Shown: piece after piece, positions 701 through 49,919 of the stretch | Layout: the number at the start of each line of letters is the position of its first letter | Position numbering within the stretch: the first letter of the stretch is position 1 | From: Acorus gramineus | Lineage: Eukaryota > Streptophyta > Magnoliopsida > Acorales > Acoraceae | Length of the DNA: 64,000 nt | Assembly (NCBI GenBank): GCA_030737835.1 | Contig: CM060854.1 | Span: forward strand, 20,291,356 to 20,355,355 | Direction: 5' to 3' | Made by a program: the position numbers and the translations under genes | Notes under the pieces: model-generated | What the model was told of the DNA's origin: nothing | Database searches by the model: none | Seen by the model: only the letters and a program-made list of their open reading frames with translations

Positions 701-1633
701 GGGTGGCTCTATTTGAGCCTCTCTGATTTGTAAGTAAGCTCCCTTTAAATGGATTTTATTGTTAAAGATCCACTTAAATTTTCCTCATAAGTACGCTCTC
801 TAAAAAATAAGTTCACCTAATTTTTTTTAATTAACATTCTTTTAATAAGCATACCGTACGCCCTATCTTGTGTATATATAGGAGTTTAATTTTTAATTTT
901 TTTTAGCCCATGTTTGGAATGAGAATAAACCCCCGGATAACCCCAGATAGAAATTTTGTTGTGTTTGGAAAGCCCGGATAACCCCAGATAAAGTATGTCA
1001 GAATAAACTGGTATAAAGTGGTATATGGATTCTAATCAACCCCTAGAATAAAAGTTATCCTAGGTTATTCCACCCAAAGAATATGTGGGTCCACTATCAA
1101 ATCAACTGTCATCACCTCTTATAAATCACTTGTCAAATCAACTATCATTACTTTTTTACTTTTTATAAATCCTTATCCATACTTTATTCACATTTTACCC
1201 AAACAACAAAACATTTATTCTTACGTTTATCAACGAGAATAATTCAAAACACAACCAAGTACAAAATCAATTTATCCTTATTTATACTCACTTATGCCGG
1301 AATAACTGTATGCCCAAGAATAAGTCCTATTCTGTATCCAAACGAGGGCTCGTTTAGGATTTTGAGGATTTGTGTGAATATGTGCAGAAACAATGGATTT
1401 TCATATTATTTTTATATTTACATTAATTTTTTTTGTTAGAATATGTTAATTAGGGCTTTGTAAAGGGAGACAGGCAGGAGTGGGGGAGAGATTTTGATAT
1501 GAAAGGGGCTTGCTTATTATTTACATATGAGGTTAATATATGAGGGATTTGTACATTAAATGATTAAAATGTGAGGGGCTTACTTACAAGAGGGGCTTAC
1601 TTATAATTTAGAGGGGCTCAAATAGAGCCATCC
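701..1633. mobile_element. Mutator-type MITE with 9-bp target duplication
   Basis: The ends are inverted repeats: GGGTGGCTCTATTTGAGCC at 701 and its near-complement finishing at 1633, with similarity running about 55 bp inward. The 9-bp direct repeat TAGGAATTC flanks it exactly (692-700 and 1634-1642). Nine-bp duplications are the hallmark of the Mutator superfamily. There is no coding capacity. A second MITE (905-1350) sits inside. Confidence 0.85.
905..1350 (+). mobile_element. Nested MITE (family with copies near 30275, 37375 and 38755)
   Basis: The termini are AGCCCATGTTTGGA and the complement of AGCCCTCGTTTGGA. The interior (TATATGGATTC, then AATATGTGGG, then a TATAAATC-rich part) matches segments at 37375-37610 (same orientation), 30275-30662 and 38755-38955 (opposite orientation). 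I see no clear target duplication, so the superfamily is uncertain; the termini would fit hAT-like or unclassified MITEs. Confidence 0.6.
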
Positions 1634-1642
1634 TAGGAATTC

Positions 1643-2087
1643 TCATTTGCCACCTCATGAGACATGTGATGGGGCATATAAGTTGGGGCTTAAAAAATAT
1701 TATTTTTAAAAAAAAATGAAAACACATGTGGACTAAAATTAGGGTTAAAATTGAGGTTGTATGTAACATTATCCATATCCATGAAAGATTATCCCTAACA
1801 TCTTCCTTACATAATTAACTTTTATAAATCAAGATCCATTATAAAGTTGTTATCATGTTAATGAGACTCCTTGTTTTTTTTTTTTTTTTTGTTAGAGTAA
1901 CTTTCTTTTGTCAAACAATAAGTTAGAGAGCGTCAAGTATATATGGGATGATTTTTTTTTTACTTAATTTGATAGTTTTTACAGTGACATGCTTTGATAT
2001 GATGACTTGAAATCCCCCGTGTTTCAAATGCAGTGGACCCCAACACACAAAATCTGATGTCTAATCATTTCGTTGAAATTTTAGAAA
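1643..2087. other. Intergenic sequence, no gene seen
   Basis: AT-rich sequence between two MITEs, with poly(A) and poly(T) runs (for example near 1874-1890). No supported feature. Confidence 0.5.
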
Positions 2088-2096
2088 ATTAAAATA

Positions 2097-3083
2097 GGGC
2101 CAAGATATACTCACTACCAAACTCACTACCCAAAATTAGCAAAATATCGTTATTTATTTTATTTTTTTATCTCTCTTTTTCACTACCCAGTTCGACAGTA
2201 TCCAGTCAAAGTCTTTTTCACTAAAACGACATATGTCCATCGATCTGCCTGAATAAGTGTCGACAGAGGCCTAGTTGAATTATGTTTCACTAGGACAATA
2301 AAGATCCATCGATATGTCTGAGCAAGTGTCGACATGGATGTGTCAAACCGTTCAAAACAACAACTTTCTTCTAAGAATCAATCACTTATACAATCATTTA
2401 AGTACTTACGAAAAACAAACATGTTATTTAACTCATTTAAGTCTTTTTGAAAATCATTCACATATATATTTATTTAAGTATAAGAAACAAAAATATCAAA
2501 CAAAAAGTTATTTGAACCAAATAAACAGTAAACATTTCATATAGACAAGAAACATTATTTTCTTTTCTAAACAATTGGAGTCTCATGTCAAAAGTATATG
2601 GAATGTTTCTTGATATTCCACTTGTGTATATGGAATGTTTAATGTTTATTTCACTTATATGACTGTTTGTTTTTTCATTTTTACACCTTGTATTTAAATG
2701 ACAAAATAGGTGAATGATTTTCAGAAGAACTTAAATGACTTAAATGGAATTTTTGTTTTTTATAAGGATTTAAATGAATGTATAAGTAATTTAGTTTTAG
2801 AAGATATGTGATGTTTTGAAGGGATCGACACGTCCCTGTCGATATTTACTCAGACAGATCGACGGACCTCTGTCGTCCCTGTGAATCAGATTTTGACTAA
2901 GTCCTTGTTGACACTTGTTTAGACATTCGACGGACCTCTGTTGTCCCAGTGAAGAAGATTTCAACTGAGCGCTGTCGAATTGGGTAGTGGAAAAGGGAGA
3001 CAAAAAAATAAAATAAATAATGACATTTTAATAATTTTGGATAGTGAAAAAGATTAAGTTGGGTAGGGGAAATAGTTTTGCCC
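2097..3083. mobile_element. Mutator-type MITE with about 260-bp terminal inverted repeats
   Basis: 2097-2355 matches the reverse complement of about 2815-3083, including a distinctive part with GTCGAC words and a TTTATTTTATTTTTTT tract. The 9-bp direct repeat ATTAAAATA flanks the element exactly (2088-2096 and 3084-3092). Short open frames inside are fragments of the repeat. Long inverted repeats plus a 9-bp duplication indicate a non-autonomous Mutator-like element. Confidence 0.88.
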
Positions 3084-3092
3084 ATTAAAATA

Positions 3093-3882
3093 ATGTTATA
3101 CATCTCACATTCTCATATTCTCATGATTATCAAAATGAAAGTTGAAAAGGTCAAAACATTCAACTCAAATTTTACATTGTTTTTTTTTTTTAATGTGTTT
3201 TAGGTTAAACAAAACAAATAAAATAAAATATAGTAAAAAATGATCTGGGCCTAGCTCAGACTTGGCCCGCTCGAGCTGAGTCCATGGGCAGGCTAGGGCT
3301 TGAAGCCCCTTAGGCTCGAATGAGCCCGGCCCATGGCCAATCCAACTTTCAAGCCATGTTTACAGTGATTAAATTTTGTAACGATGTATATACTTTTCTA
3401 AATTTATAACGAGGTATACAAGATTGTATGTTGATTGGTAAAAAAAAATTGAGTAGAATAGCGCCCTTACCCAAATGATTAGATGTTATAGTGTATGGTC
3501 TTGATAGCACTGTTAGATGTTTCTTCTGCTTTGACATATTTTTATGAAGTATATACAAATACGTTATTTTTTGGGTGTGAAATATTATATTCGATTCATT
3601 GGGTGTATATAATTCATTTTTTTAAAAGTATACCTATTTAAAAAAAATAAAACAGATGGGGATTATAAAAATGATTGCATGTAACTGCATATAACATCAT
3701 TCATTTATTGATCAATTGAATGATCTAGTACAATTCATTCATTGTACATATAATATCTAAACAAAAAAAAGTTCAAAATTACTTCACACCATAAATTACG
3801 ACTTATTTTTTCCAATCCAATTACAACGTTGCATTACAAATACACTAGATAGATCAAAGAACCACTCAATACACACTCAAAT
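3093..3882. other. 3' flank of RLP1, with a short GC-rich patch
   Basis: About 3460-3882 is homologous to the region downstream of RLP2 (31110-31640) and, in part, to 15850-17790, so it belongs to the duplicated RLP unit. The stretch 3690-3770 is the uninterrupted version of the site that holds a SINE-like insertion at 31372-31432. A GC-rich patch at 3245-3345 uses GAGCCCGGCCC-like words resembling the foldback family at 20584 and 55194, but no element boundaries are visible. Confidence 0.6.
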
Positions 3883-6756
3883 TCAGTTTCTTTTCATCAC
3901 TTTCAATCTACGCATAGAGAGAACATAAGCCACATATACCTTATCTCCCAATTCATCCAGAAAGAGGAAATATAGAATCCTCCAGTCTTTTTTGAACAAC
4001 AAAATACCCCAAACCATCCAACATCCCAAGATGAATCCCAGCATGACGCCGAGGAAAAGCCATAGCATTTCTTCGTCTGCTGTGTTGTCTTGATTGATGG
4101 ATGCAGGGCTTCGTGGCATACCATGACCCAAGCAATCTTTCGATGTTGGAGGCCCACATAGATCATAGTTTCCCTCGTAAGATTTATCATTGAATGTTTG
4201 AAGTTGAGAGCCTGTTGGAATTCTCCCCGACAAGTTATTGAAAGACAAGTTCAAGTCATCCAAAAAATTGAGCTCGGACAGGCTCGAAGGAATCGGTCCA
4301 GTGAGATTGTTTCTTGATAAATCGAGAGACAACATGGAATTCATATCACCGATCTTTGCGGGGATTTTTCCTGTCAAATGATTTGCAGACAAGTTCAGGC
4401 TCTGTAACCCAACGAGATTAACAATACTTTCGGGGATCTCTCCATCCAGGGAATTGTTGGACAAGTCCATGTTGTTTGCGAGTGCGAGTGTGTTGGTGTA
4501 GACCAATTCCAACCCATTCCTGACTAGTAACAAACTAAAAAATTCGTAACTTTGTATGTAAATCACTGTACCATTGAAATCAGTCAGTGCACTTCCGTTT
4601 GGACGTCTAACCATGCCTCTGAAATTACCAATGCACTTTGGTATAGATCCCACCAAATGATTGTTTGCAAGGTCCAATATCTGGAGAGAAGAAAGATCAC
4701 AAATTTGTTGAGGAATAATCCCACTAAAGTTATTTGATCGCAGCTGGAGGTATTTCAAACTGGGAAAGGTCTCCCATATCCTGGAAGGAATGTTTCCATG
4801 GAAATTATTCTGACTGAAATCAATCATAGCCAACTTCTTACAGTGCTTTAAAGAAGAAGGGAATTCTCCAGAAAAATTGTTATTCTTCAATTGTAATGCT
4901 CGAAGTTCAGTATGCAACATCATACTCGGTAACTTTCCATGGAGGTTATTGTTTGCCAATTTGACAACTAGGAAGCCCGTTAAATTCTCCAAACAGTGAG
5001 GTAGCTCTCCCGACAAATGATTATCGGACAGATCGAGAACTCCGAGGTTGTGAGCTTTACATATGTTTGGGGATATGATTCCATTTATACTATTATTTGA
5101 AAGATCTAACAACACTATTGTTTGGTTTTCATGATTGTCAAAGATAATGGGTCCTGAAAATAAATTACCCTGTAGATAGAGAATATACACATTGGTAGGA
5201 ATGGGAGGTAATGGACCTTCAAACTGGTTTGAACTTAGGTCGACTACTCCAAAGATACTAGATGTAAAGGACAGGGGCAACATCCCTCTAATCTGGTTGT
5301 TTGAGAGATTCAAATAACTAAATTGGGTTAAGTTCCAAAAATAATTTGGTATGACATCTGAAATCCCTGTGTTGGATAAATCAAGATGTTCAAGCTTCTC
5401 ATGTGCTAACCATTCAGGAAATTTAGGATCCAATAGTTTACAAAATGATAAGTCAACATATTTGAGATGAAATGGAGGAACCCAGTTTGAAGTAACATTG
5501 AAGGACAAGGAATTATGACCAAGGGAAAGTTGTTCTAGTTTAGTGAGTTTGGAAAAGTGATCTTCAGAAATGACACCATACAATAAGTTATCAGTAGCAC
5601 GAAGAACACGTAACTCTGAGAGTTGTCCAATGTTCTTGGGAATTGTACCGTTTAATTGGTTGTGACTTAGATCTAGATGCGATAGGAATGACATCCTTCC
5701 AATAGATGCTGGGATACATCCTGTAAAACTATTATTTGACAGACCAAAAGCAGTTAAATTTTTGAACTGCTCGAACACATCAGACAAATTCCCTTCAAGT
5801 TCATTGGAACCAAGATAGAGGACCTCAAGGGAGACCAAGTTTCTCAAGGTATTGGGAATTGGACCATGAAAATTGTTATAGCTAAGGTGGAGTTCTGTAA
5901 GGGAGCTTAGATTGGAGAACCAGCCAGGTATAGAATCAAATAGGTTTCTAGAAAGATCGAGGACAGAAAGATGAGTAATATTAGCATACTGATGCCCAAG
6001 GGAACTCGGCAAGCTACCAAGTTGACAATTCTCTAACCATAGAGTAGATAGAGTAGTTGGGAGAGTGCTGATCATCTGGAACCAGTCGGAAGACTCAGAG
6101 AGGTTCACATCCCTCAAATCAAGATGCTGCAAACTGGAAAGGCCTGACAACCATTTTAGGCTTTTAGCGTTGACTTGATTCTCCCAAATAGAAAAATATT
6201 GCAAGCATGACAGGTTTCCTAGCTGTTGAGGAATTGCACCACTGAAGGAATTCCAAGAAAGATCCAGATGTCTCAATTCTGACAGCGACCCAATGAAGGG
6301 AGGGATGGGTCCTCCAAAGGAATTCCAAGAAAGATCCAGATGTCTTAATTCTGACAGCGACCCAATGAAGGGAGGGATGGGTCCTTCAAAATTATTCCTG
6401 CTGAGATTTAAATAATATAGATGTTTGAGATCAAGCAAAGAAGAACCCACTGTACCTCCCAAATAGAAAACAGTGTCCCAATTATTGAGATCAAGTTTCA
6501 CAACGTGGGCCGTTTGGTTGTCACAGCCGATGCCTTCCCACCGGCAACAGTCTTCTCCGTGCCATGAAGAGAGACGATGCCTGGGATCATACAAGCCTTC
6601 TTTGAATTTGAGGAGGGCCTGCCTTTCAACCTCCAAGCAAGAGGTGTTGTTGGAGCCAGGACTGCAGAGAGACAGGTTGACTGTTCCCACACAAAGTATA
6701 AACCAGATCAACCAAACCAAAGAACCACCTGATGACATAAGGTTGAACTCACTCAT
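3883..6756 (-). CDS. LRR receptor-like protein, EIX/Cf type (RLP1)
   Basis: Predicted plasma-membrane receptor without a kinase. It is 957 residues from the chosen ATG at 6756: a hydrophobic signal peptide (about 1-31), a cysteine-paired LRR N-cap ([15 protein letters not shown], then [16 protein letters not shown]), about 30 extracellular LRRs of the LxxLxLxxNxLxGxIP type broken by a short island, a C-terminal cap ([11 protein letters not shown]), an acidic stretch (about 890-897), one membrane segment (about 898-921) and a 36-residue basic tail. This order is typical of plant RLPs that detect microbial or apoplastic ligands and signal through partner kinases. The frame is open up to 6897, but a TATA-like run at 6802-6815 and the signal peptide favour 6756; 6783 is the alternative. 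There is no intron. Two adjacent LRRs are nearly identical (6245-6388). RLP2 is a decayed paralogue on the same strand. The ligand is unknown. Confidence 0.94.
6245..6388 (-). repeat. 72-bp tandem duplication of one LRR unit inside RLP1
   Basis: The unit starting at 6245 repeats at 6317. The two 72-bp copies differ at only one or two positions (for example CTCAATT versus CTTAATT). Seventy-two bp is exactly 24 residues, one LRR, so the frame is kept. RLP2 has only one copy at the matching place (about 36490-36560). Confidence 0.9.
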
Positions 6757-6801
6757 TTTCACTATATTCTGAATATACTGCATCTCCTTGCCCACATTGC
6801 C

Positions 6802-6815
6802 TATATATATATAAA
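6802..6815 (-). promoter_or_regulatory. Candidate TATA box of RLP1
   Basis: On the minus strand the run reads TTTATATATATATA, about 45-60 bp upstream of the ATG at 6756. Transcription starting about 30 bp downstream would begin near 6783, which argues for the 6756 start codon. Inferred from position only. Confidence 0.5.
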
Positions 6816-7505
6816 TCTTGGAGTATAGAAGGGGTTTGGGTATTATTAATCTTGTTGTCTGGACCCGGGGACGGAGAGAAATTTCAATATTCAACAACCC
6901 TCTGAGCAGTTACAGATTAGAGCCCAACATCGAAGACTTCAAGTCCATGGCAGAAGACTTTTTTACCCAAAAAAAAATAATTTCCATGGCAAAAGACTCA
7001 AAGCAGCGTTTGCAAAAGACTCAAAGCATATAAAGTTGTTATGTATCTGGGCCCAGGAATCAATGCGAACAAACAATAATCAGAGCACTACAATTAAGAT
7101 TTCCTAGTCAATGGAAGATTTGAGTGAATAATTATCGAGTGTTGTTACAGAGTCTTTTTTTCATCCCCATTTCCAGTGATGTATATCTCGTTAACATCAT
7201 ATACTCAGTTTAACGAAGTATATATCTTTTTAGAAATTTTTCACATTTTCAATAAATGGATCCATTCAATTATATTTACATCATATAAAATTAAAAGCGT
7301 ATACATAATTAGATGAGATACATTATTTTTAAAAAATTCAAAACGTGTGTGGATTGGAACTGAGTCTGAAGAAGGGGGGATGCATGTATTATTATGCATA
7401 ATTATATGGTGGAGATGATATGAAAAAAAAAAGTAGCGCTGATACTCTCAGTCCATTTTACAACCCTATATAAGTGTATAATGTAATAGGACATTATATA
7501 TTCTA
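6816..7505. other. 5' flank of RLP1
   Basis: No gene is seen. The region shares blocks with 17791-18140 and 37600-37800, for example AGTCAATGGAAGA followed by a GATACTCTCAGTCC-like block, showing it is part of the duplicated RLP unit. Confidence 0.6.

Positions 7506-10730: not shown

Positions 10731-10735
<5 letters not shown>
9230..10735. repeat. Tandem duplication, unit about 750 bp
   Basis: About 9230-9975 and 9976-10735 align along most of their length: TTTGTAAAATAGATATATAATAAG-type blocks at 9355 and 10138, GTGACACTCAATTTTTTTAC at 9598 and 10389, and a GATAAACATCATATCATGC block at 9877 and 10629. Divergence is moderate, so the duplication is not recent. No coding potential. Confidence 0.75.

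Positions 10736-10766
<31 letters not shown>
10735..10766. repeat. (AT)n microsatellite
   Basis: A pure AT dinucleotide run directly outside the left inverted repeat of the MULE. It blurs the left edge of that element. Confidence 0.9.
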
Positions 10767-10770
<4 letters not shown>

Positions 10771-10776
10771 TGGGGC

Positions 10777-11040
10777 TCTCCGACGGACGCCCGTTTTTTA
10801 AAATTTGCGGACGAGTAGAAGAACACGGAATGGAGGGCTGTGATTAAATTCCGAAGAAAACCAAAAGTCCACTGATTTGTGCTCTCATTTAATGCAATCA
10901 CAGTCTTAACCAACCCCCAACCCAACCTAGTTAAAACAACCCAACGGAACCAGCCCTCCCCGAAAACTGAAACCGTTAAAAAACCCTCCCTCAAATTGCT
11001 GATCAGCCCTCCCCAATGGACGCCGCTGCCCTCCCCGACG
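10777..11040. repeat. Left terminal inverted repeat of the MULE
   Basis: Matches the reverse complement of 15572-15835 with scattered substitutions. It includes the CCAACCCCCAACCCAACC and CCCTCCCTCAAATTGCTGAT blocks. Apparent reading frames here (for example on the minus strand at 10683-10994) are mirrored in the right repeat and are not genes. Confidence 0.88.
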
Positions 11041-11105
11041 GAGAGACTCTCCGCACAGAGAGAGCCTCAAAAGAATCCTAAAAAACCACTTTTTTTAAAA
11101 AAAAA

Positions 11106-11300
11106 ATGGAGAACTACAAGCACCCATCATGGAGGATCCCCAACGGCAACGGCTTGGTTCACCCCACCAAGTCGGTACACGATGACGTCTTCGGTGGTCC
11201 CCCGAAATTCGTTGCCGCCCCTTACATGGCACCCATGGCGGCGGCGGTGGGGAGGGTCGACGACTACGCTGAGATCTTCGGAGGTTCCGGCGAGGGATGT
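11106..11300 (+). pseudogene. Captured exon fragment resembling the N-terminus of an auxilin-like protein
   Basis: A plus-strand frame starts with ATG at 11106, just inside the left inverted repeat. It encodes a segment with DDVFGGPPKF and then VDDYAEIFGG. From memory, this pairing is characteristic of plant auxilin-like J-domain proteins that help uncoat clathrin vesicles. Only the N-terminal part is present; no J domain follows and the frame ends near 11343. The GC-rich codon use differs from the surrounding AT-rich DNA, as expected for a captured gene piece (Pack-MULE style). The family call is recognition by motif and was not searched. Confidence 0.55.
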
Positions 11301-11344
11301 TCATGGAGGTTAAGAAAGAAGGTGGGATTTTGTTTATGGGTTTG

Positions 11345-12509
11345 ATTTTTTTTTTTTATGTTCAGTGAACACTGAAAAAAGGGTTTTTTTTCCCCTTCTT
11401 GTGTTTATGGGTTGTTTGGTTTTTTTTATGGAATTGTCTTTTTAGCTGAAGAAAATGAAAATATGAGCTTTTCACAACTGATGTAAGAGTTAAAATTTTC
11501 AGTCACTGAAGAATGACTAAGACATTTTAAGGATGTGTTATAGGAAGTGAAATTGTGATTTGTCAAACAATGTGTGATACAACTTTTCTTCATTTTTAAT
11601 TGAGTTTCTTTACATGCAATTGATGAGTTTATGCTCTGATTGGAATACTTTTTTCAAAAAAAAAAAAAAAACTTTTTCAAGATTGTTACAATATGAACTA
11701 GAACATAACATCCATACAGACTGAACATGAACAGCTGACTTGAATTATGAAAACAGAGACACTTCCTCAGTTTATTATAAATAATGGTATATGAATTTGC
11801 TCATTGAGCTTCGTATTTTACATCGGCATTGTTTGGTCTCCCTGGGTTTTGCAGATCATTGTGCTAAGCAAACATTGTGTCATAGGTCAATCACATATGG
11901 ATAAGTATGTCCAAATGAACAGGTTCACTGGAGAATTAATTATATGGAGCACTGTTGTATGAAAGAAAATTGAATTAACAGTTCAACCTGAGCCTATCAT
12001 TCAGCATGTTGTAGACTTGCTATATGTAGCTGTATTTAATAGTATGTTCATAATAACTTTGTTTTTAAAACCTTATCAAAACTAAACCAACAAAAAAAAA
12101 CTTTGTTTTGCTTTTTGCATAGCCAAACAGGCATGATATTAAAATTCACCAGGAGTTCTGCTCTCAGATAATACATGCTACAAGGGATTTGAAAACATCT
12201 ATTGATGGATTTGTTTTCCAAAGGTTTTTTCTCTGCATTCAGATGACTTTTGCAGTGAAGTACACAAAAAAAAAAATTACACATGACATTGTCAATGCCA
12301 CAAAAAGATTGTGCCAACATCCTTTTAACAGGAAAATTATACATGCTACAAAGGAAAATTACATGCTACAAAGAAAATGCCACACAAGTAAAAATCTATT
12401 GATGGATTTGTTTTCCAAAGTGTTGAGTTCTTTCTTTAACTTTCTTGGGATAAACCTGCATTAAAATTTTAAAAGCATGGTAGTGGATTAGCTTTCTTTA
12501 GCTTTCCAA
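11345..12509. other. Noncoding interior of the MULE, downstream of the transposase gene
   Basis: AT-rich, with many T runs. A segment with TCTATTGATGGATTTGTTTT occurs twice (about 12198 and 12397), a partial duplication about 200 bp apart. It may hold the 3' untranslated region or further exons of the transposase gene, which runs toward it. No convincing extra exon is identified here. Confidence 0.5.
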
Positions 12510-12559
12510 TCAAATACTAGTGAAATAGAAACATTGAAATAAAAGAGTATAACAATTAC

Positions 12560-12630
12560 CTAAGGATGAAACACTGTCATCATCTCTATTAGAACAACTT
12601 GGATTTGCATCGTTATTGCAAGGAGAAGAC
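12560..12630 (-). CDS. Possible second coding exon of the FAR1-type gene
   Basis: The first-exon frame reaches a stop at 12700-12702 that overlaps a good splice donor (TCG then GTAAGA, exon ending at 12704). A 73-nt AT-rich intron ends in TTTAATGTAG at 12631. The next 71 nt continue the frame with no stop and end in TTAG followed by GTAATT, another possible donor. If that donor is unused, the frame stops at 12510-12512. Skipping this intron would keep the 729-residue form. Inferred from splice consensus and frame continuity only. Confidence 0.4.
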
Positions 12631-12699
12631 CTACATTAAAGACAAATAATACATTTCAATACATTAAATAAAAATCAATGAATAATAAATGTCACATTC

Positions 12700-14889
12700 T
12701 TACCGATTACTAAGCATTGGACAGTTTCTTTTATCGTGCAATTGTCCAACTTTTCCACACCCATGACAACGCCTCAGTTTATCATTTCTCTTTCTGTTTG
12801 CAATCTCCTTTCCTCCTTTTAACCTTTTTCCACACCCCTTTGCCCTGACTTGATTTGGATCACTAAAACTGACTTGAGTATTACTTGTATTCTGTGTAAT
12901 TGGATCAGCACTTCCACTACCAACCACATGTTTGGTCTTCTCGAGCACATTATCCAACGCATCAGTAAAGATCTTCCTTGCATCTTCACTTAACAGGACC
13001 TTATCAATCACATCCGAAGCATGTTGGAATAATCTGCTCCGTTGCATAAGTAGTGATCTATCATCAGTTATCTCTGTACCATCTTCAGCTACGACTCTCT
13101 CAGACTTTGCAGTTTTGGTCCATCTCTTCAAGATGTACTGATTCGATAAATGGACAACATCATGCATTTTGTTCAAATATGCTAAAATGTGCTTACATGG
13201 GATTCCTGCACTCTCAAATTTTTTGCAGCTGCATGAAACAAAATTCAAACCTTTTTCATAAATAATTTCTCGCACTTTGTACTTCTCATCATTGGTTTTT
13301 TTAACCTTATACATGCAGTGATGCTGATTCTCATGGACAAGTTCAAATCTGAAATTGAAGCTTTCCCACAACTCATCTTGAAATTTATAGAAATTCTTAC
13401 GCGTATAAATTTCAGGCATTTGCCTTCCCATCTCCATTGGCAACTTCAACACGGGCTTCTCATTCACATCAATATGATCAGCCATCAGTTCTTCATGCCA
13501 TTGGCGTACAAGTCCCCTATTAAATTGAATCATAAAATCCACTAATGAATTTTTCTTAGACACATACCTCTTGAAGAAGGAATGAGAACTTTCCGCTCTT
13601 TGGCTACTTGACATTCCGGCAGAGAATACATTATTCACATATGCAGGTACCCATGCCGAACGAATTTCATACATTGACTGCATCCACCTATTGTCATTAA
13701 GCCCACTTTTCTGAACAACCTCCATCCATGATGAGTCAAACTCTTCCCTTGTCTCTGATTCCCATATGCACTTTTGGAAGTACCTGTAATAATCCCTGTA
13801 TTTGACTGCATCCAGCTTCTCAGAGAATTTATTCAGGATGTGCCAACTGCAGTACCTGTGAAAAACATTTGGAAGAGCTTGGGAAATGGCTTTAGTCATT
13901 GCTGGATCTTGATCAGTGATAATCATTTTGAGGGAATTGCCTGGCATAGCTTTCTTGAATTGCTCAAATAGCCAAATAAAAGAATCTGTTGTCTCATCAC
14001 ATAAAAAAGCACATGCAAAAATGATTGTTTGGCCATGATTATTAACCCCCATCAATGGTGCAAATATCATCCCATATCGATTCGTGTTGTATGTTGTATC
14101 AAATATAACTACATCACCATAGAATCTGTAAGCACGCCTAGAGGTTGCATCAGCCCAAAAACAATGAGTAATTCTTTGTTCATTATCTGACTTGATTTTG
14201 AAATAGAAAGACGAATTCTTTTCTTGTTCTAAAAGAAAATGCTCATGCAACATATCTCCATCATGCCCCTTCATCTCATTACGTTGATCTCTTTCATAGT
14301 TATAAATGTCTTTTTGTGTACACCCAATATTTTCTATTCCTCCGGCTTGCATCTCAAGAATGCTAAATTGTTGATGTGTTGGTACATTTACTGAGCCAAG
14401 CTGTTGGGTTAAGGATTTTTGGACACTTGAAACACTACGGTGAGATCTTAACAGATGTACCTTTCGTGGGGTTGCCAATGGATGGTTGTGACTCTCAACA
14501 AATACAGTCACTACAAATGTGCCAGATTTGGACTTGACAACTGCAATCTTTGCCTTACAATCCTCTTTTATTATGCCCCGACGCCTTTTTTTCTGATTAA
14601 CATCTTCCCTAGAATATGTTCCTTCTTTATAGCACACATACTCCTTCCTTAAGACTTCATTAGTGTCCCTACTCTTCCGACTCGAATGAATTCGAACACT
14701 AAATCCAGCTTCTTTTGCATATTTGTTGTAGAACTCATGCACATCATTTAGTGTTTGAAATTCTTTTCCTTTTGTAGGCTTCAATTCATAATTTACTTGA
14801 GGAGTGTAAACAACATTGCAAGAATTTGAATCTAACTCTTCTTCATGTTGGCTGCATTCATTCTCCACTCCCAAGTCCAGATTATCCAT
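12700..14889 (-). CDS. FAR1/FHY3-type MULE transposase
   Basis: The 729-residue protein has the full FAR1-family order: a FAR1 DNA-binding zinc domain (about 48-138, with C86, C111, H134 and H136), a MULE-type DDE domain (about 255-390) and a SWIM zinc finger (about 550-570, CSC, then CKH). A C-terminal CCHC zinc knuckle follows (C708, C711, H718, C723). The catalytic acids expected of the superfamily appear retained: D264 in FDTTY, D326 in ITDQD, and an acidic residue in the EEFDSSW segment (E382/E383). There is no internal stop. The gene lies inside long inverted repeats, so I read it as the element's own transposase; a domesticated FAR1-related regulator is the alternative. The start at 14889 is the first ATG after stops. 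A downstream exon at 12560-12630 is possible. Confidence 0.92.
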   Translation of the reverse strand: MDNLDLGVENECSQHEEELDSNSCNVVYTPQVNYELKPTKGKEFQTLNDVHEFYNKYAKEAGFSVRIHSSRKSRDTNEVLRKEYVCYKEGTYSREDVNQKKRRRGIIKEDCKAKIAVVKSKSGTFVVTVFVESHNHPLATPRKVHLLRSHRSVSSVQKSLTQQLGSVNVPTHQQFSILEMQAGGIENIGCTQKDIYNYERDQRNEMKGHDGDMLHEHFLLEQEKNSSFYFKIKSDNEQRITHCFWADATSRRAYRFYGDVVIFDTTYNTNRYGMIFAPLMGVNNHGQTIIFACAFLCDETTDSFIWLFEQFKKAMPGNSLKMIITDQDPAMTKAISQALPNVFHRYCSWHILNKFSEKLDAVKYRDYYRYFQKCIWESETREEFDSSWMEVVQKSGLNDNRWMQSMYEIRSAWVPAYVNNVFSAGMSSSQRAESSHSFFKRYVSKKNSLVDFMIQFNRGLVRQWHEELMADHIDVNEKPVLKLPMEMGRQMPEIYTRKNFYKFQDELWESFNFRFELVHENQHHCMYKVKKTNDEKYKVREIIYEKGLNFVSCSCKKFESAGIPCKHILAYLNKMHDVVHLSNQYILKRWTKTAKSERVVAEDGTEITDDRSLLMQRSRLFQHASDVIDKVLLSEDARKIFTDALDNVLEKTKHVVGSGSADPITQNTSNTQVSFSDPNQVRAKGCGKRLKGGKEIANRKRNDKLRRCHGCGKVGQLHDKRNCPMLSNR

Positions 14890-15571
14890 TTTAGTATAAA
14901 CTAAAAAGCCAAAAAAAAAGAAGAATAAGCTCCAAACTCTTATATGAAAAAAGCTTCAAACCAAAATAAACAGAGACATTTTCAAATGACAAAACTCAAG
15001 TAAACTCATCAATAAAATTAACGCATGAATTACATGTCTCCTTAAAACATTCAAACCAGAACAAAAAAAAACAAAAAGTCCAACATTTTTTTTCACATGC
15101 CATGTTCATGTTTTATTTGTTGAATTAGGTGATTAAAAGTGGCTTAGTGAGAACCAGAAAATGGAGTTGATGTTTATAATATCATAACTGTTATTAGCCT
15201 TGTAGCAGGGCTCAGAGTACACCTTCAAAAATCTAATACAATGAATCATAATATTCTAAAAAAAAAAAATTTAAAACAAGATCCATAACATTCCTAATAT
15301 CTGAGTTCTTAAAATATGTCTCCAAAAAAAACTTCAAATGACAAAAACTCTTATATGAAAAAAAAATCAAATCACAAACTATATTTTCTTGACAGGCAAT
15401 GTTCATGTTCATAATCCACCCCCAAAAAAGCCCTAGATTAGAAAGAAAAAAAGCCCTAGATTTACTATACCAGTCACCATGGAGTGTTACACCAAACCTT
15501 TGCGTGATCTATCGATCGGGAAGGGTGATCGGCATCGGGAGGGACCGTCGGGGAGGACTATCGGCGTTGGG
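14890..15571. other. 5' region of the transposase gene
   Basis: AT-rich leader and promoter region between the transposase ATG and the right inverted repeat. Transcription would run leftward out of the right repeat. No specific promoter element could be fixed. Confidence 0.45.
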
Positions 15572-15835
15572 GAGGGGGAGCGGCAACGGCGTCCATTGGG
15601 GAGGGCTGATCAGCAATTTGAGGGAGGGTTTTTTAACGGTTTCAGTTTTCGGGGAGGGCTGGTTCCGTTGGGTTGTTTTAACTAGGTTGGGTTGGGGGTT
15701 GGTTAAGACTGTAATTGCATTAAATGAGAGCACAAATCAGTGGACTGTTGGTTTTCTTTGGAACTTAATCACAGCCCTCCATTCCCTGTTCTTCTACTCG
15801 TCCGCAAATTTTAAAAAACAGGCGTCCGTCGGAGA
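15572..15835. repeat. Right terminal inverted repeat of the MULE
   Basis: Inverted partner of 10777-11040, ending in GGCGTCCGTCGGAGA at 15835. The plus-strand open frame across it (15399-15887) mirrors the minus-strand frame in the left repeat and is not a gene. Confidence 0.88.
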
Positions 15836-16419
15836 ATTATTGCAACAAATGGGGATTGTAAAAATTATTGCATATAAATGCATGTAGCATCATTTATTTA
15901 TTAAACAATTGAATAATCCATAATAATTCATGGGAAAATGACAAAAAAAGTCTCATAAAAGTTAGAAATATATAAATCATCAATTTTTTTAAATTATACC
16001 AAAAAGTCTTATTTCACAATTTTGAAAACACAAAAGACTAATCTACCCTTATATATTAAATCCTTAACATATTCTATACATTTTAATTTTGTTAAAATAT
16101 TTCACACATTCTCGTGGAGAATTCTTTTTTACTCTAAATTCTTTATGATTAGGTGGACTTTATGAGATATATGCTAATATAGTTTGAGTTTTTTTATAAT
16201 AAACTCCATTAAATGTATGCTTCTTTAAAAAAATAAATATTTAAACTAATTTGAGTTTTTTATTATAAACTAATGACACCATAAAAATATCTGAATAGCC
16301 AAGTAAAAAAAATGTGAATAAGTATTTAGACTACTAAAATATCATCTACTGTATTGGGGTACAACACAGATTTAAATTACATATTATGGTTATACATAAT
16401 AAAAAAGATAAACAACATC

Positions 16420-16465
<46 letters not shown>

Positions 16466-17790
16466 ACACATAATATGATATGTAATAACAACACCTCTAA
16501 GGGGATTGATTTGTGTCATGTAGAGTGAGATTGTTGTTTTATAGAAAAAACAGGTGTTTGGTGTGAAATAACCTAAAAAGGGTTTGAAGGATGTTAAAGA
16601 TCTAATTACATAAGGGTAGATTAGTCTTTTGTGTTTCCAAAATTAGAAAATGTGGATTGTAAAAATTATTGCATATAAATGCATGTAGCATCATTTATTT
16701 ATTAAGCAATTGAATAATCCATAACAATTCATTCATTCTACATATCTATCTGTTATCTAACCAAACGTTTTATGTTGTATTCGTTCCATTGTGTGTTACA
16801 TTTTCAGTTCCAATTTTATCATTAGTTATACCTTAATTTTTAATTTTATATTAAAGGTAAGAATGGAAAAAATAAATATTTTTAATATTTTAAAAGATAA
16901 TGTGAGATATTTATGAAATCTATCTTTTTAATCTATCTATCTATATTAATGATATATTGAATAAATGGTAGTGATCGTTCCACATCATCATATATATTTT
17001 TCGTTATTATTATTTTTTTATTAGATTTAGATTGAGATAATCATATAATATATGTGATAAAAACTAATTTCAGGTCAAATATGAGTTTTACGTTTGATCT
17101 CACTTTTCATCATACAGTAGTCATTTGAAAAACAATATATTACACGGTCATAAATATTTATCAAAAAGCTCTTTCCAACTAGATATTGATCACCCCAATC
17201 GGGGCTATCCTTGAAAAATTATGAATTTTTAATTCTTGATTTTTTTTTTGGTATATATGCCCCTAACAAATCACACTTTTATAAAATATTCATGATTATT
17301 TGTTATTTTCAATAATATTATTCAAAATGGTTCAAATTGTACATGAACATTGTTTTTTTTAATAAATTCGAGCGATATTGTTGGTTTGAGAGTTTCAAAT
17401 TGGGTATTTTTAAAATATACGGTTGGTGTAGGGATATATATGCAAAAAAATCATTTTCAGTTGTAATATATCTTCTTTATGTGTAATTTCATAATAAATT
17501 TTACAAAATTTTTATTTAATAATTATTAAAATTTTTATCATATTATTTATGTATATAAAACATCGTATATCATATCGCATATAAATGAATTAAAAAAAAA
17601 TTGAGGATACTGATTGTGGGTAACTTTTGTAATATATATATATTTTTATTTTTATTTACACGTATGTCGTGCATGAGGGATGTTAAGGCTTGACTGTGAA
17701 TTTAAAAAACAAAAGGAATTTCAAAAATTACATATCTCACCACAAATTATGATTTATTTTTTCCAATCCGATTACACCGTTGCATTACAA
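15836..17790. other. 3' flank of a third, deleted RLP locus, with an inserted foldback segment
   Basis: 15852-15930 and about 16650-16735 are direct repeats of about 80 bp, both matching the RLP1 and RLP2 3' flanks. Between them, 15933-16647 has inverted ends (16010-16075 versus 16580-16645, sharing AAAAGACTAATCTACCCTTA). A TA microsatellite lies at 16423-16461. The remainder to 17790 is AT-rich flank ending in GTTGCATTACAAA, the same sequence found just downstream of RLP1. Confidence 0.6.
16423..16461. repeat. (TA)n microsatellite
   Basis: A pure TA run inside the foldback segment. Confidence 0.9.
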
Positions 17791-25540: not shown

Positions 25541-26404
25541 TTGGTCACCCTTGGTCCACCGATAGTCTCTCCTCCACTCCGTAGGCCGCCCGGTCTACTC
25601 CCACATTCAGCACAGTCCGTCCTAAATCAGGAGGTGCCTACTGATGGGAGCCCTCTGTCAGGAAGGCCTGTCTAACGCTGGGGTAGTCTCTACCGGATCC
25701 AACGAAGGGAACAGAACAGCCTACCCATCGCATATGATCCACTTGGATCCGCAGACGGCACATTATAACAACACTAATGTTCTGAATTCCTCAGAACCCA
25801 CCAGGGCGCATAACTACGATGCGGGGAACATGCATAAGGTTATAACAAGGGTGGAATATCATTGGAGGAAAGAAACTCGGGAGGGCAGCGTGAGTTCCCG
25901 TTATAGGGCACCCCGACAACCAAACAAGGAACACGGTGTACCCTAACCCGGGTCTCACCGCTGTCCTCGCAAGGCCCCTCCCCTATAATATTCACTATAA
26001 CATGCAATTTTAACAAATACTAGCATTTAATTTAATAAATAAACTAGTAGGGCACATGCATCGGTCGGGCTTCCTAGCATGGAAACAGGGGACATGCTGC
26101 ATGGCTCATACACATCCTAAGGGTGCAAGTCCCTAACATGCAAAGTCTAGGGTAACATGCATTCTACAATTAAATCATGCTCGCATGATATACAAATTAC
26201 AACATGCCAATATTCATCCATGGTGCCCCAGGAGAGGTCGGTATACGCCCAAGTGCGTATAACACCTCTCTACTGGGTTGGATTGTCCCACTCACCGGAA
26301 TCCGGGTCGTCACGCGACCGTCCGTCTAGATCTGCAAGACAGACATTCAATATGGTGAGAAACCACACAATTTATACATAAAAATGCATAGAAATACCCA
26401 AAAC

Positions 26405-27540
26405 TCGGATAAGCATGCATACGGGCTCGCACGCATGCGAGCACGCACGTACACACGCGAGTCCGAGTGCCCCGACACCTACCCGAACCCTCGGGCAGCC
26501 ATTCGCATGGCCCCCTGCATGCGCACGCACGAATGCGCACGCACGCACACACCCCGGCACCATCGGCGCACTGCCGCGCGCTTGCCCGCGAGCCCAGACG
26601 CGCACCCGCACGCATGCGCACGCTCGCGCGCGCCCACGTGCACCGCGCGTCCAGCCCGCGCCCCTCGCGCAGCACCCCGCGCACTGCCCCAGCACGCCCC
26701 AGCACGCCCCAGCACGCGCACGCACGCGCATGCACGCGCGCGCGCGCACTGGTTCCCTGCCCAGTGCCCAGGCGCACTGGCCGCGCGCGCGCACGCCTGC
26801 GCGCCCCCGCGCGCGCGCGCCCGCGCGCACTCCCGCGCACACCCCCGCTCGCGCCAGCAGCCGCGCGCACCCGCGCACCCACTCTGCGCGCACCCGCGCA
26901 CTCGCGCGCGCACGCACCCGCGCACGACTGCGCGCCCGACTGCGCCCGCCAGCGCCCAGCACCCGCCACCCGCGACCCAGCGCCCAGCGCCTGGGACCCT
27001 CACTTAGCGTCCACGCGCACGCCCGTGCAACACGCGCCTGGCAGCACGCGCCCAGCGCGCCTGCCAGCCTGCCCGCGCTGCTGCCCGCGTTGCCTGCCTG
27101 CGCGCGTCGCCGAGTGGCCCGAGCACCGCTCGCCTGCACGCCCGGGGCACTGCCCGTCTGATGCCCGAGCGCCCCTGCACCCCCCGAGCGCACGCCCGCG
27201 CGCACGCGCTCGCGCGCCCAGCAAACTGGTGCCCTGCTCCCAGCCTACCCAGCTAGCCCTGCCAGCCTAGCACCCGACTAGCCCTGCACGCCCAGCACCA
27301 GCCCGCGCGCACGCCCGCGCGCACGCACGCGCGCGCCCTACCAGCGGCCCTGCCCGCTGCGCCTGCGGCTGCTGCGCCTGCTGCTGCTGCCCTGCCATCC
27401 TGCCCGAGCCCGAGCTCCTCTACCACCCACCTCCGACCACCGCCACAGCCTCCGACCGCCTCCCACAGCCCTCCGACGGCCACCCACCGCCGCCAACCGC
27501 CTCCCAACCACAAAACCACCCCCCTAGCATTCATCTAAGC
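26405..27540. repeat. Extremely GC- and CpG-rich core of the solo LTR
   Basis: About 1.1 kb of GCGCGC, CACGCACGCGC and GCCCGCGC words, against an AT-rich background. Long open frames occur in most reading frames because stop codons are scarce. The protein readings are low-complexity Arg/Ala/Pro or Cys/Gly strings, so this is not coding. Matching shorter cores lie at 33040-33560 and 47990-48540. Confidence 0.88.
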
Positions 27541-29875
27541 AAGAAAAAGAGGGAAAGGGGGCTTACCAAGGGGAGGAGGGGAAGTCCGGTGGCTCTCCGC
27601 GCGCCGAAACCTTTCTCAAAGGCTCTCCTACGCCCCGATCTACCTCCACCGCCGAGATGGCTCAAATCAGGGACGAAGAGAGGGCGGACGGACGGGAAAA
27701 ACTCGCCGGAATTGGGATTTGAAAACACCGGAGTGTAGATCGGGACCCGATCTACACTTCCTAGGTTTTAGGTTTTAAGCTTTGAGGGGTCTAGGGGGCT
27801 CAAAAGTGAGAAAAATGGGTAAGGGGAGAGAGGGAGACCATTGGGGGAGAAGATGAATAGTGCCAAGCACTTTTTAAATCCCACTTATATAACCAGCGAC
27901 TTAAAAACCCAGATACGCCCCGGAACTGTGAAATTTCGGGAACGTTACCGGAATTCGATGAAATTTTCGTGAGAGGTCTAAAATGACACCAGGACACCAA
28001 ATATGCAGTTAGATTTCCAATCGGAGTCCTCTAGCTCAGGACGATAGCTAACAGTCCAAAAATTAGCGGTTCCGATCGAAAACCGAAAAAAAAATAAAAA
28101 ACTGCCAGAACGCTCCAACGGTTACCAGCAGGCTAAAAAGTGACACATATATAACAAAATCAGATTATGATGTCTTCACAAATTATGATCCTAACATGTC
28201 AAAGAAAGTTTTTGATTTATTTCAGAATTATTGGATGTGTATTTGGTGCTGTAGAGATTAAAGTTTAGTGCTGGTTGTAGTAGATGCACCAGTTTTATTT
28301 GATTGTGTGTCAAAGAGCTATTATGCATGATGTGAGAACCATCAAGAGTTAGTGTCTTCATGAAGTTGGCTTGTATGTGTGTCAGGAGATTTCATATTTT
28401 AATTGAGCATCATTGGTTGTGTTTTGCAGCTTTCGTTGATAGAACTCGTGATGATCCAGGTAACGGTGAGTTGTTCGATCGACCCAGTTAGGAAGCGCGT
28501 AATACACGTAGCCGTGCTCCATGTATTCTAAGAGCGCCGTAGTTATGTAGTATTCATATAATGGACGTATTATTAGGATTATAACTTACCATGTTAGATA
28601 ACGCATACTATATATATTTATAATTTGTATTTTGCGTAGACAATTTATATCGCACCCATTACTTGTTTGTCCACCATAATACATGCATAAATAACTGTAT
28701 TTTTATACAACTATTGCTAGCATAATATTGTATCTTATGTATCTAGTATTATAGAATATGGTATGCCATAGGTGGTTCGTGTATCGAATTTGCTCCATGA
28801 TTAGTTAAATATGTGGTATGCTATTTATCATTAAGTGTGTATAGTTCCATACTTAGCTTTGACATATTATAGAATGTTAAAACTAAATACTTGAATATTA
28901 AACCTTGCCTATCAGTTATAGGCGTGTGTAGGACCCGCCTTTGGGGTCATGCTAGGACATTATTCAGTTGTGAAAATAGTTAAGCTTCCCGCATCCGAGG
29001 GGCTGCAACTTTATGGGAATTCACGAGAATTCGATAGCGTATCGGTAATGGCTAACCGATGGTGGAGGATTTATAAGGGTTATATTGTGAGTATAGTGTT
29101 TCTTTTACAAATTATCGTGCGTCGAAGTTGTCCAATGTCGAAGCTTTCCTGCGTGGTGTTGCCATGATGTTGGAAGGCCACCAGGAAGAGGGCTACCTGG
29201 AAGAGGGCTACCGGATGATGTAGGGCGTTAGTGTATTGATTTCTCCCAAAAGTCTCTTGTCATCCCTATGGGCAAGAATGAGGGCGTAGTGAGGGCACAG
29301 TGAGGGCACGTCATTGCGTGATGTTCTATTATTATAGGTTATTCCATGTCTTGGTTGGAACTATTATTGTACTATTGATGTGATATAGATGCGGTGTGTG
29401 GCTTCTTACCATTCACTGAGCTTGTAGCTCACCCCTCGTGTATTGTTCCTCCACCAAGAGTTGAGTTGATCTTGAAGGAGAAGCTCCGTGAGGTGCAATT
29501 CCATTAGTTGTTGCAGCGTCCAGTCTTTTGGTTCTTCGAGCGTGGGACCGTCAGCATTCCTCTTACCTGTATGTTATGGTATTCGTGCTTGAGGCACATG
29601 TCATTATTTTTAGTTGATTTTGACTAGACTTGGCTCTCACAGGACAATAATTGTGTTAATTGGATCTGTAATATTACTTTGGATTATAGATTTATGTCAT
29701 TTTACGCTTCCACACTTTTTGATAAGCTATCTATTATTATTGCTTTGTTAAACCAGATATGTCATATGTTAGATCATCGATGTATCCCTTGGAGTCATTA
29801 TTGACCTCTTGTATTGATCATCTGATATTTTTATATATTGCTACGATCCGAGGACAGCCGCTCCGGGGCGTAACA

Positions 29876-45073: not shown

Positions 45074-45369
45074 AATGGTGCCGTTTGTGGGAAGCGGGAC
45101 AAAAAGCCATTTCCCTAAACAAGATCTGGAAGAGATGGTGAAGATGAGAAGGGAAGCATATTAGTTGGGTTTCAAAGATGAGCTGATGCTGGGGGCAAGA
45201 TCCCCTTCCATCCCAAGTCTCAAACGAGACATCCCAATGAAGAAGGGCAAATCTCGAGGAAGACCACCACATCAGATTAACCTCTACCTCCTCTTGTAGC
45301 TGAAGAAGAAATGTTCGAGAGAAGAGGTCACGTGGAGCCACGGAAGCCATCTTTTCAGATCTGGTCTTC

Positions 45370-46000
45370 CCTACATATTAGGTTTTCTCTGCAGGGCACC
45401 TTTTTTGGTCTTCCCTTCAGGCCACCATTTCTGGTCTTCCCAGCATACTAGGTCTACCCTACAGGGCACCTTTCTGGTCTTCCTTGTAGACCAACTCTTC
45501 CCTACAGAGCACCTTTTTTGGTCTTCCTTGCAGGGCATCTTTTCTGGTCTTCCCTTCAGGCCTCCATTTCTGCTCTTCCTAGCAGACTAGGTCTACCCTA
45601 TAGGGCACCTTTTCTGGTCTTACCTGCAGACCAAGTCTTCCTTGCAAGGCACCTTTTCTAGTCTTCCTACAGACAAGGTCTTCCTTACAGGCCACCTCCT
45701 CAGGTCTTTTCTTCAGGCCATCCCTTCAGGTCTTCTCAACGGACCACATCTTCAGGTCTTCTCAATGGGCCACCCCTTCAGGTCTTCTCAACGGGCCATA
45801 TATTCAGGTCTTCTAAATGGGCCACCCCTTCAGGTCTTCTCAACAGGCCATATATTCTGGTCTTCTAAATGGGCCACCCCTTCAGTCTTCTCAACGGGCC
45901 ATATATTCAAGTCTTCTCAACGGACCATCTTCAGGTCTTCTCAGCGGACCATTTTCAAGTCTTCTCAACGGATCATCCCTTCAAGTCTTCTCAACGGATG
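45370..46000. repeat. Degenerate CTTCTC/GGTCTTCC repeat array
   Basis: Units of roughly 30-57 bp built on GGTCTTCC, TTCAGGTCTTCTCAA and GGGCCA(T/C). Part of the internal region of the LARD-like element. Confidence 0.75.
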
Positions 46001-46011
46001 GGACACCTTAA

Positions 46012-46664
46012 GCCGCACCCATCTGTTATGGACTCGAGGTCGTGCATAAAAATAAGCCGTACTCGTCCATCTGGGAATAAGAGTTGCGCACCCCAAAAGC
46101 CGCACCCATTTGTTATTGACTCGAAGTCGCGCATACAAATAAGCCGTACTCGTCCATCTCAGAATAAGAGTTGCGCACCCCAAAAGTCGCACCTATCTGT
46201 TATGGACTCGAGGTTGCGCATACAAATAAGCCGTACTCGTCCATCTCGGAATAAGAGGTGCGCACCCCAAAAGCCGCACCCATCTGTTATGGACTCGAGG
46301 TCGCGCATACAAATAAGCCGTACTCGTCCATCTCGGAATAAGAGGTGCACACCCCAAAAGCCGCACCCATCTGTTATGGACTCAACGTCGCACATACAAA
46401 TAAGCCGTACTCATCCATCTCGGAATAAGAGGTGGGCACCCCAAAAGCCGCATCCATCTGTTATGGACTCGAGGTCACGCATACAAATAAGTCGTACTCA
46501 TCCATCTTGGAATAATAGGTGTGCACCCCAAAAGCCGCACCCATCTGTTATGGACTCGAGGTCACGCATACAAATAAGCCGTACTCATCCATCTCGGAAT
46601 AAGAGGTGTGCACCCCAAAAGCCGCACCCATCTGTTATGGACTCGAGGTCGCGCATACAAATAA
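46012..46664. repeat. 87-bp minisatellite array, about 7.5 copies
   Basis: The unit starts GCCGCACCCATCTGTTATGG; copies begin at for example 46273 and 46360. The array resumes at 49413 after the solo LTR. Because 87 is divisible by three and the unit lacks stops in some frames, both strands show long open frames encoding a 29-residue repeat. I do not take these as genes. Confidence 0.9.
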
Positions 46665-49439: not shown

Positions 49440-49900
49440 GGTGACGCACACCTAGCCGCAATGGCAACCAAGACGCACTCCAATGGGACGGGGCACGGAC
49501 GAGGTCGCGAGGAGTTAAAACTCCACTTGCTAAATGAATTTCACCTTGTCACCTATCAGGTCAAGGGTCGTGAGGAGCTCCACTTTATTCACTTATCGGG
49601 TAGCACTCGAGTCTCTCCGGACTAAGGGACGCGCACTAGCCGCAACAGCAACCAAGACGCACTCCAATGGGATGGGGCACGGATGAGGTCGCGAGGAGTT
49701 AAGACTCTGCTTGCTAAGTGAATTGCACCTTGTCACTGATCAGGTCAAGGGTCGCAAAGAGCTCCACTCTATTCACTTATCAGGTAGCACTCGTGTCACC
49801 CCGGACTAAGGGTCGTGCACTAGCCACAACAGCACAATTAAGACACTCTCCAATGGAATGAGGCACGAATGAGGTCGCGAATACAAATAAGTCGTACTCA
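49440..49900. repeat. 184-bp tandem repeat, about 2.5 copies
   Basis: ACCAAGACGCACTCCAATGG recurs at 49467 and 49651, with a more diverged third start near 49835. Internal region of the LARD-like element. Confidence 0.82.
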
Positions 49901-49919
49901 TCCATATCGAATTGGAGGT

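What the first reader, a model, noticed from the sequence alone, without database searches (positions are those of the whole stretch)
10777..15835. Apparently complete Mutator-like element with an intact FAR1-type transposase
FAR1/FHY3 proteins are known descendants of MULE transposases, and in annotation such genes are usually filed as light-signalling factors. Here a full-length FAR1-type frame with retained acidic catalytic candidates, SWIM finger and CCHC knuckle sits between inverted repeats of about 265 bp. That points to a living or recently living element and not a domesticated gene.
Basis: partly seen in the sequence, partly recalled or inferred. Interest (0 to 1): 0.75.

Follow-up and report, generated by a model that had tools for sequence, protein, structure and literature searches.

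The report
Recently inserted, end-damaged FAR1-type Mutator transposon
A plant jumping gene of the Mutator type, whose enzyme is a cousin of the light-signalling FAR1 proteins, jumped fairly recently into a TA-repeat, carries a copied piece of a host gene, and has since lost the tip of one end; it belongs to a known kind of element.

Summary
The inverted repeats (97% alike), the open FAR1-MULE-SWIM frame and other genomic copies are real; the coordinates and 'complete' are not. The right end at 15835 lacks the last nine bases and the TA tract: this copy is end-damaged. No 9-11-bp duplication was found; sister copies sit in TA microsatellites. Four related sites without the element have a TA-rich tract at the same point, and the nearest differs by three substitutions in the flanks, so the insertion is recent. 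The element is a mosaic: left end plus a copied auxilin-like gene fragment (5'UTR, exon 1, start of intron 1), joined to a transposase module found at 96.7-98.5% identity in other elements, some with very different terminal repeats. Transposase dN/dS is 0.19-0.30 in the 9 deep pairs: a lineage kept functional while transposing, not one domesticated gene. It is a new member of a known kind: TA-microsatellite-targeting MULEs with Jittery-like transposase, such as Medicago AutoMuTAnT.

The parts
10734..10767 (.). (TA)17 microsatellite, the left part of the target site
   Evidence: I5; related sites without the element have a TA-rich tract here
10768..11036 (+). left terminal inverted repeat (type A), true end CAGTGGGGCTCTCCGACGGACGCCC
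11038..11654 (+). copied host-gene fragment: part of the 5'UTR, exon 1 (with about 133 bp missing; ATG at 11106) and start of intron 1 of an auxilin-like gene at C6:3.94 Mb
   Evidence: the parent's J domain matches PDB auxilin J domains and, below cutoff, Pfam DnaJ
11761..11768 (.). left mosaic junction: type-A/host-fragment module meets the transposase module within 8 shared bases
12159..15050 (-). transposase module shared at 98.0-98.5% with elements on C2, C5 and C7 that have other terminal repeats
12560..12630 (-). inferred second transposase exon (GT-AG borders by eye; no transcript seen)
   Evidence: sequence; inference
12700..14889 (-). FAR1-type MULE transposase: 729-aa open frame plus stop; inferred splice donor just before the stop
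14991..15584 (.). segment that in two type-D elements (C9, C79) lies within their own long inverted repeat; single copy here
15575..15584 (.). right mosaic junction, 10 shared bases
15575..15835 (-). right terminal inverted repeat (type A), lacking the outermost nine bases
15836..15852 (.). right junction: target sequence resumes without a TA tract

Best explanation
A 5.07-kb Mutator-like DNA transposon with a FAR1-type (Jittery-like) transposase. The transposase is inferred to bind the ends (outer block CAGTGGGGCTCTCCGACGGACGCCC...TTTGCGGACGAG) and to paste the element into (TA)n microsatellites, where its sister copies sit. The type-A form arose when an element holding a copied auxilin-like gene fragment became joined, at short shared sequences, to the transposase module of a related element (type D). 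The window copy inserted recently into the TA tract of one unit of a local repeated region that includes a leucine-rich-repeat gene, and has since lost its last nine bases and the right TA tract. It is probably immobile in cis now but may still make transposase. Shown: ends, copies, related empty sites, host-gene copy, mosaic structure, truncation. Inferred: binding, splicing, order of events, loss of mobility.
For: Ends: 11 pattern matches, 0 in control; 8 of the 11 are directly preceded by TATATA and 2 by TATATA with one mismatch (searches compared); the eleventh (C6:15.2 Mb) follows a CA/TA tract. Empty sites: 4 of 5 fetched paralogous flanks have no element and a TA-rich tract at the insertion point (pure TA in L063 and L064, with a short TGTTTCATT stretch in L061 and L062); the fifth (L065) holds an unrelated insert in the same tract. 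Closest, L061: 2 mismatches and 3 gap openings in 602 columns on the left, 1 mismatch in 134 on the right. Transposase: Pfam; dN/dS 0.19-0.30 in all 9 pairs that involve C3:10.45 or C5:19.1 Mb. Host fragment. Mosaic: transposase module 98.0-98.5% (C2, C5, C7) and 96.9% (C126, part held), while type A, B and D ends are 54-59% alike over their first 250 bases.
Against: No transcript, siRNA, methylation or excision data. The 6 pairs of close copies have at most 7.3 synonymous differences and give dN/dS 0.29, 0.64, 0.81, 0.83, 3.57 and one undefined, so recent constraint on the window's own frame is not shown; 4 of its 5 private codon changes are nonsynonymous, one in the SWIM finger. One of the two deep members (C5:19.1 Mb) has itself lost E433. 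The direction and order of module exchange are not resolved. The near-identical empty site could reflect gene conversion or excision and not a young insertion. Jittery itself was not compared.
Confidence: 0.83

Rival explanations
1. A domesticated FAR1/FHY3-like host gene flanked by a local inverted duplication.
For: Open frame with FAR1, MULE and SWIM domains; deep dN/dS well below 1.
Against: Dispersed copies with the same ends in microsatellites; four related sites without it; close copies broken by stops or frameshifts; private changes mostly nonsynonymous.
Confidence: 0.02
2. A copy whose own transposase no longer works and which was moved by another copy's enzyme.
For: Private nonsynonymous changes, including R566K inside the SWIM finger; an element on C2 has both ends and an open frame and could supply enzyme in trans.
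Against: The frame is open and the acidic candidates D264, D326 and E433 are kept (their catalytic role is recalled). The private changes may postdate the insertion.
Confidence: 0.3
3. The missing right tip is an assembly error and the real element is complete.
For: At least one stretch of this assembly is doubtful: the C10 copy is scrambled over element positions 3401-4400 (197 substitutions in 986 aligned columns).
Against: The window's right flank is 98.5-99.3% identical to the related sites from its fourth (L062: ninth) base on, with no disturbed sequence around the junction.
Confidence: 0.08

Closest known systems
AutoMuTAnT / MuTAnT of Medicago truncatula (PMC4486113; parts 1 and 2 of 4 of the text read)
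   Same: MULE of about 5 kb (4,873 bp) with a Jittery-like transposase between long TA tracts; G-rich tip (GGGG); a quarter of the copies lack much of one or both terminal repeats, and tips vary.
   Different: Different terminal sequence; five exons and 833 aa; 9-nt duplications reported for the copies outside perfect (TA)n, none seen here; no copied host gene mentioned in the parts read.
gSaTar / AgS-MULE of guayule and Micron/rSaTar of rice (PMC5907723; passages only)
   Same: Microsatellite-associated MULEs; AgS-MULE1 is 5.3 kb with 400-bp terminal repeats.
   Different: Mostly short non-autonomous elements; FAR1 does not occur in the text (0 occurrences).
Jittery of maize (PMC9569675 and PMC3903597; passages only)
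   Same: Active MULE placed in one clade with FAR1; cDNA of three exons.
   Different: 3.9 kb; its sequence was not compared here; TA targeting not seen in the passages read.
Pack-MULEs and MULEs with multiple terminal repeats (PMC3310237; passages only)
   Same: Host gene fragment between terminal repeats; extra terminal-repeat sequence inside an element.
   Different: The gene-carrying elements described there are Pack-MULEs; here the fragment sits in an element with an open transposase frame.
FAR1/FHY3-related domesticated genes (PMC2528002, passages on Jithouse genes)
   Same: FAR1-type N-terminus, transposase core and SWIM.
   Different: Described there as single-copy without terminal repeats; this one is multicopy with terminal repeats and related empty sites.

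Membership tests
Mutator-like element (MULE) | MULE transposase domain | tested here: met
   PF10551, 1.5e-28, 99.6 bits against cutoff 27.6
Mutator-like element (MULE) | long terminal inverted repeats | tested here: met
   about 260 bp, 97%
Mutator-like element (MULE) | 8-11-bp target-site duplication | tested here: inconclusive
   none at the window copy; in a TA tract a duplication cannot be told from the repeat
Mutator-like element (MULE) | dispersed copies and empty sites | tested here: met
Jittery/FAR1 clade | N-terminal FAR1 domain together with SWIM finger | tested here: met
   PF03101 and PF04434 above cutoff; the MULE survey PMC6446971 lists these for its Jittery group (passages)
Jittery/FAR1 clade | placement beside Jittery in a transposase tree | not tested
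   no Jittery sequence was held; placement is inferred from domains
TA-microsatellite-targeting MULE (MuTAnT-like) | insertions flanked by (TA)n | tested here: met
   4 of 4 other full-length type A/B copies have TA tracts on both sides, some imperfect; the window copy on the left only
Pack-MULE | host gene fragment with a parent elsewhere | tested here: met
   parent at C6:3.94 Mb
Pack-MULE | non-autonomous, no transposase gene | tested here: not met
   open transposase frame inside; so not filed as a Pack-MULE
Domesticated FAR1/FHY3 gene | single copy, no terminal repeats | tested here: not met
Active autonomous element | transposition or excision observed | not testable with these tools
   no reads, accessions or assays

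The most novel reading that the evidence does not exclude
One FAR1-type transposase lineage serves several sets of terminal repeats that are only 54-59% alike over their first 250 bases, and the elements trade whole modules (ends, copied host sequence, transposase) by switching at 8-10-base homologies, so that terminal repeats turn over faster than the enzyme; one C6 element even has a type-A left end and a right end that resembles type B.
Probability: 0.35. Interest if true: 0.5.

Novelty: new member of a known kind. Interest (0 to 1): 0.33.

Why it matters
It is a clear case of a FAR1-type frame that annotation could file as a light-signalling gene and that is a recently mobile transposon, with related empty sites to show it. 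The set of elements that share one transposase module but differ in terminal repeats gives a concrete test of how transposon ends evolve and what sets microsatellite targeting.

Tried and rejected
Local inversion or domesticated gene: rejected. A canonical duplication of 7-12 bases, with end positions varied by 12 (six best candidates listed per element): for the window five lay inside the repeat itself and one was a 7-base, one-mismatch pair away from the ends; for the four sister copies the six listed were all TA-type. PDB search with the transposase: nothing significant (best E 0.84). Pfam with the copied exon alone: nothing. Counting further relatives with a looser terminal pattern: with 2 mismatches the control is as frequent as the pattern (67 against 68), so only the rows with 0 or 1 mismatch at already known ends were used. 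Dating from the two arms was not used, because the arms of one element differ about as much as arms of different copies (2.7% for the window; 1.5-5.8% among the six arms). Aligning the copied exon with its parent failed because the fetched stretch began inside exon 1; redone. Reading the ends of the C3:4.95 and C7:0.27 Mb transposase elements failed: the stretches held contain no TA tract of six units and no terminal motif.
Full report
What was claimed and what is there. The inverted repeats are real: 10777-11030 against 15582-15835 at 97%, 261 columns at 96.9% by BLAST. Between them lies a minus-strand frame of 751 aa without stops, 729 aa from the ATG at 14889. Pfam gives FAR1 (3.3e-24), MULE (1.5e-28) and SWIM (1.4e-7), all above cutoff. 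The acidic candidates D264 (DTTY), D326 (TDQD) and E433 (RAESSH) are present; that these are the catalytic residues is recalled, not tested. The C-terminal CHGCGKVGQLHDKRNC has CX2CX6HX4C spacing. A cousin on C5 (19.1 Mb) has QRVKSSH where the others have QRAESSH, so it lacks E433.

The genome. The window is C8:20291356-20355355 of an unnamed 398.6-Mb genome in 137 contigs. The left arm matched 22 places (by the tool's own words a lower bound for repeats). A second copy with both ends lies at C10:2.42 Mb; three longer elements (6,031-6,079 bp) lie on C2, C5 and C7. In these three the region of element positions 1392-4283 is 98.0-98.5% identical to the window's, but their ends (type B; arms of about 550 bp in the C7 and C2 copies) match the window's over only about 108 bases at 78-80%. 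Over the first 250 bases global alignments give 58% for A against B, 54% for A against D and 59% for B against D; ten shuffles of D against A gave 38-52%. The overall likeness of A and D is therefore weak, and the relation rests on the conserved outer block seen in the alignment.

True ends. Compared with the sister copies, the window's left end is CAGTGGGGCTCTCCGACGG at 10768, after (TA)17. The right end stops at ...CCGTCGGAGA (15835) and goes straight into ATTATTGCAACAAATGGGG; the four sisters continue with GCCCCACTG (C2: GCCCCACTA) and a TA-rich tract. The 19-base terminal pattern with up to one mismatch has 11 matches in the genome, none in the reversed control, and none at the window's right end. 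Eight of the 11 are preceded by TATATA, two by TATATA with one mismatch, one by a CA/TA tract.

Related empty sites. A search with the right flank scored 40 of 1346 candidates; 13 listed places match it nearly in full at 87-100%, the window itself among them: 12 on C8 between 19.98 and 20.40 Mb and one on C75. Five were fetched. Four (L061-L064) match the left flank, run through a TA-rich tract without an element, and continue into the right flank; the tract is pure TA in L063 and L064 and holds a short TGTTTCATT stretch in L061 and L062. The fifth (L065) has an unrelated GC-rich insert of roughly 0.6 kb in the same tract. Outside the tract L061 differs from the window by 2 mismatches and 3 gap openings in 602 columns on the left and by 1 mismatch in 134 on the right; L062-L064 by 18-20 mismatches on the left. 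The insertion therefore postdates the split of the window's unit from L061's, unless gene conversion or excision is the cause. The window's nearest gene, 3883-6909 on the minus strand, is a leucine-rich-repeat protein with an LRR N-terminal domain; 'receptor-like protein' is my reading, and that the C8 places are a tandem cluster of such genes is an inference from the flanks alone.

Copied host gene. Element positions 271-887 match C6:3.945-3.946 Mb at 86% and 80% in two pieces, with about 133 bp of exon 1 missing from the element. The parent's first exon begins MEDYKHPSWRIPNGNGLVHPTKSVYDDVFGGPPKF. Further along lie a long charged frame and a J domain (frame) that matches PDB 3ag7 at 4.9e-19, auxilin J domains at 3.7e-8 and weaker, and Pfam DnaJ only below its cutoff (21.5 against 27.8 bits). 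The name 'auxilin-like' rests on these; the whole gene model was not built. The fragment lies against the inner edge of the left terminal repeat (repeat ends at position 269, fragment begins at 271), on the strand opposite the transposase. It is shared with elements at C6:15.2 Mb (99%), C10:2.42 Mb (98%) and C4:19.03 Mb (86%), so the copying is older than the window insertion. The C2, C5 and C7 elements carry positions 614-1001 in inverted order beside the transposase.

Mosaic. Positions 1-1001 follow the C6:15.2 Mb element, which then diverges. Positions 994-3134 (to the edge of the stretch held) and 4224-4817 follow the C126 element at 96.9% and 95.8%; C79, C9 and C93 match in part. In C79 and C9, positions 4224-4817 lie inside an inverted repeat of 0.76-0.79 kb. 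The two joints share 8 and 10 bases. The C6:15.2 Mb element has a type-A left end and a right end that by eye resembles type B. Five type-D ends were found with up to two mismatches allowed (all have 0 or 1), none in the control. Which module moved into which element is not resolved, and the mechanism (switching at short homologies) is inference.

Selection. Six transposase frames were compared; C3:4.95 Mb only over its 380-codon open piece, and C93 only to about residue 709, where its frame leaves the family sequence (the remaining part lies about 7 kb away on the same contig, so a nested insertion is likely). All 9 pairs that involve C3:10.45 or C5:19.1 Mb give dN/dS 0.19-0.30. The 6 pairs among close copies give 0.29, 0.64, 0.81, 0.83, 3.57 and one undefined, with at most 7.3 synonymous differences, so they say little. 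Of 5 codon changes private to the window, 4 are nonsynonymous. A protein search of the genome scored 61 of 1479 candidates and listed 66 matches; of the 5 rows covering 1-729, four have no stop (window, C2, C3:10.45, C5:19.1 Mb) and one has one (C3:4.95 Mb). The frames of the C5:8.28, C7:11.67 and C10:2.42 Mb copies are broken. In the C10 copy positions 3401-4400 hold 197 substitutions in 986 aligned columns, against 0-5.5% per 200-base bin elsewhere, in a pattern of short compensated slips; an assembly fault is as likely as decay.

Known context. MuTAnT (PMC4486113, parts 1-2 of 4 read): 218 copies, 204 of them in perfect (TA)n, and one 4,873-bp element with a Jittery-like transposase between TA tracts. 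Passages only were read of the guayule/rice SaTar paper (PMC5907723), grapevine MULEs (PMC2528002), the MULE survey with a Jittery group bearing an N-terminal FAR1 (PMC6446971), maize/rice MULE clades with Jittery and FAR1 together (PMC3903597), the Jittery cDNA (PMC9569675) and MULEs with extra terminal repeats (PMC3310237). A search for papers with MULE, auxilin and captured listed one, unrelated by its title. So each property (FAR1-clade enzyme, TA targeting, copied host fragment) is known; the combination in one element was not seen in the listings, which cover open-licence papers only.

Noticed in passing
G000, many contigs (rows at 39-43% identity): A second FAR1/MULE-type family about 41% identical to the window's, with many near-full-length open frames at separate places; probably a larger family.
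   Followed up: no
15847-15931 and 16648-16732: 85-bp direct repeats (96%) flank about 0.7 kb that holds an inverted pair (16018-16070 / 16591-16644, 91%) and a TA tract at 16422-16462; part of it is a dispersed repeat in the genome.
   Followed up: partly
L065 (C75:202950-203880): An unrelated GC-rich insert with inverted ends, roughly 0.6 kb, in the same TA tract of a paralogous unit: equivalent tracts have been hit by two different elements.
   Followed up: partly
L023 (C10:2.42 Mb copy), element positions 3401-4400: Dense compensated slips and homopolymer runs confined to 1 kb of an otherwise about 98%-identical copy; possibly a poorly polished stretch of the assembly.
   Followed up: partly
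C93:285322-295315: A type-D-like transposase copy appears split in two parts about 7 kb apart, as by a nested insertion.
   Followed up: no
26310-27738, 32793-33793, 47836-48846: GC-rich blocks with overlapping open frames on both strands; 32793-33793 and 47836-48846 share near-identical stretches of translation.
   Followed up: no
45360-46664, 49443-50865, 59709-60115: Minisatellite arrays with units of 26-87 bases (and 184), several overlapping long open frames.
   Followed up: no
6245-6390: 72-bp tandem duplication, a multiple of three, inside the leucine-rich-repeat gene 3883-6909.
   Followed up: no
L025 (C6:15.2 Mb), about 964-4023: About 3.1-kb element with a type-A left end and a right end that resembles type B: unlike ends on one element.
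   Followed up: partly
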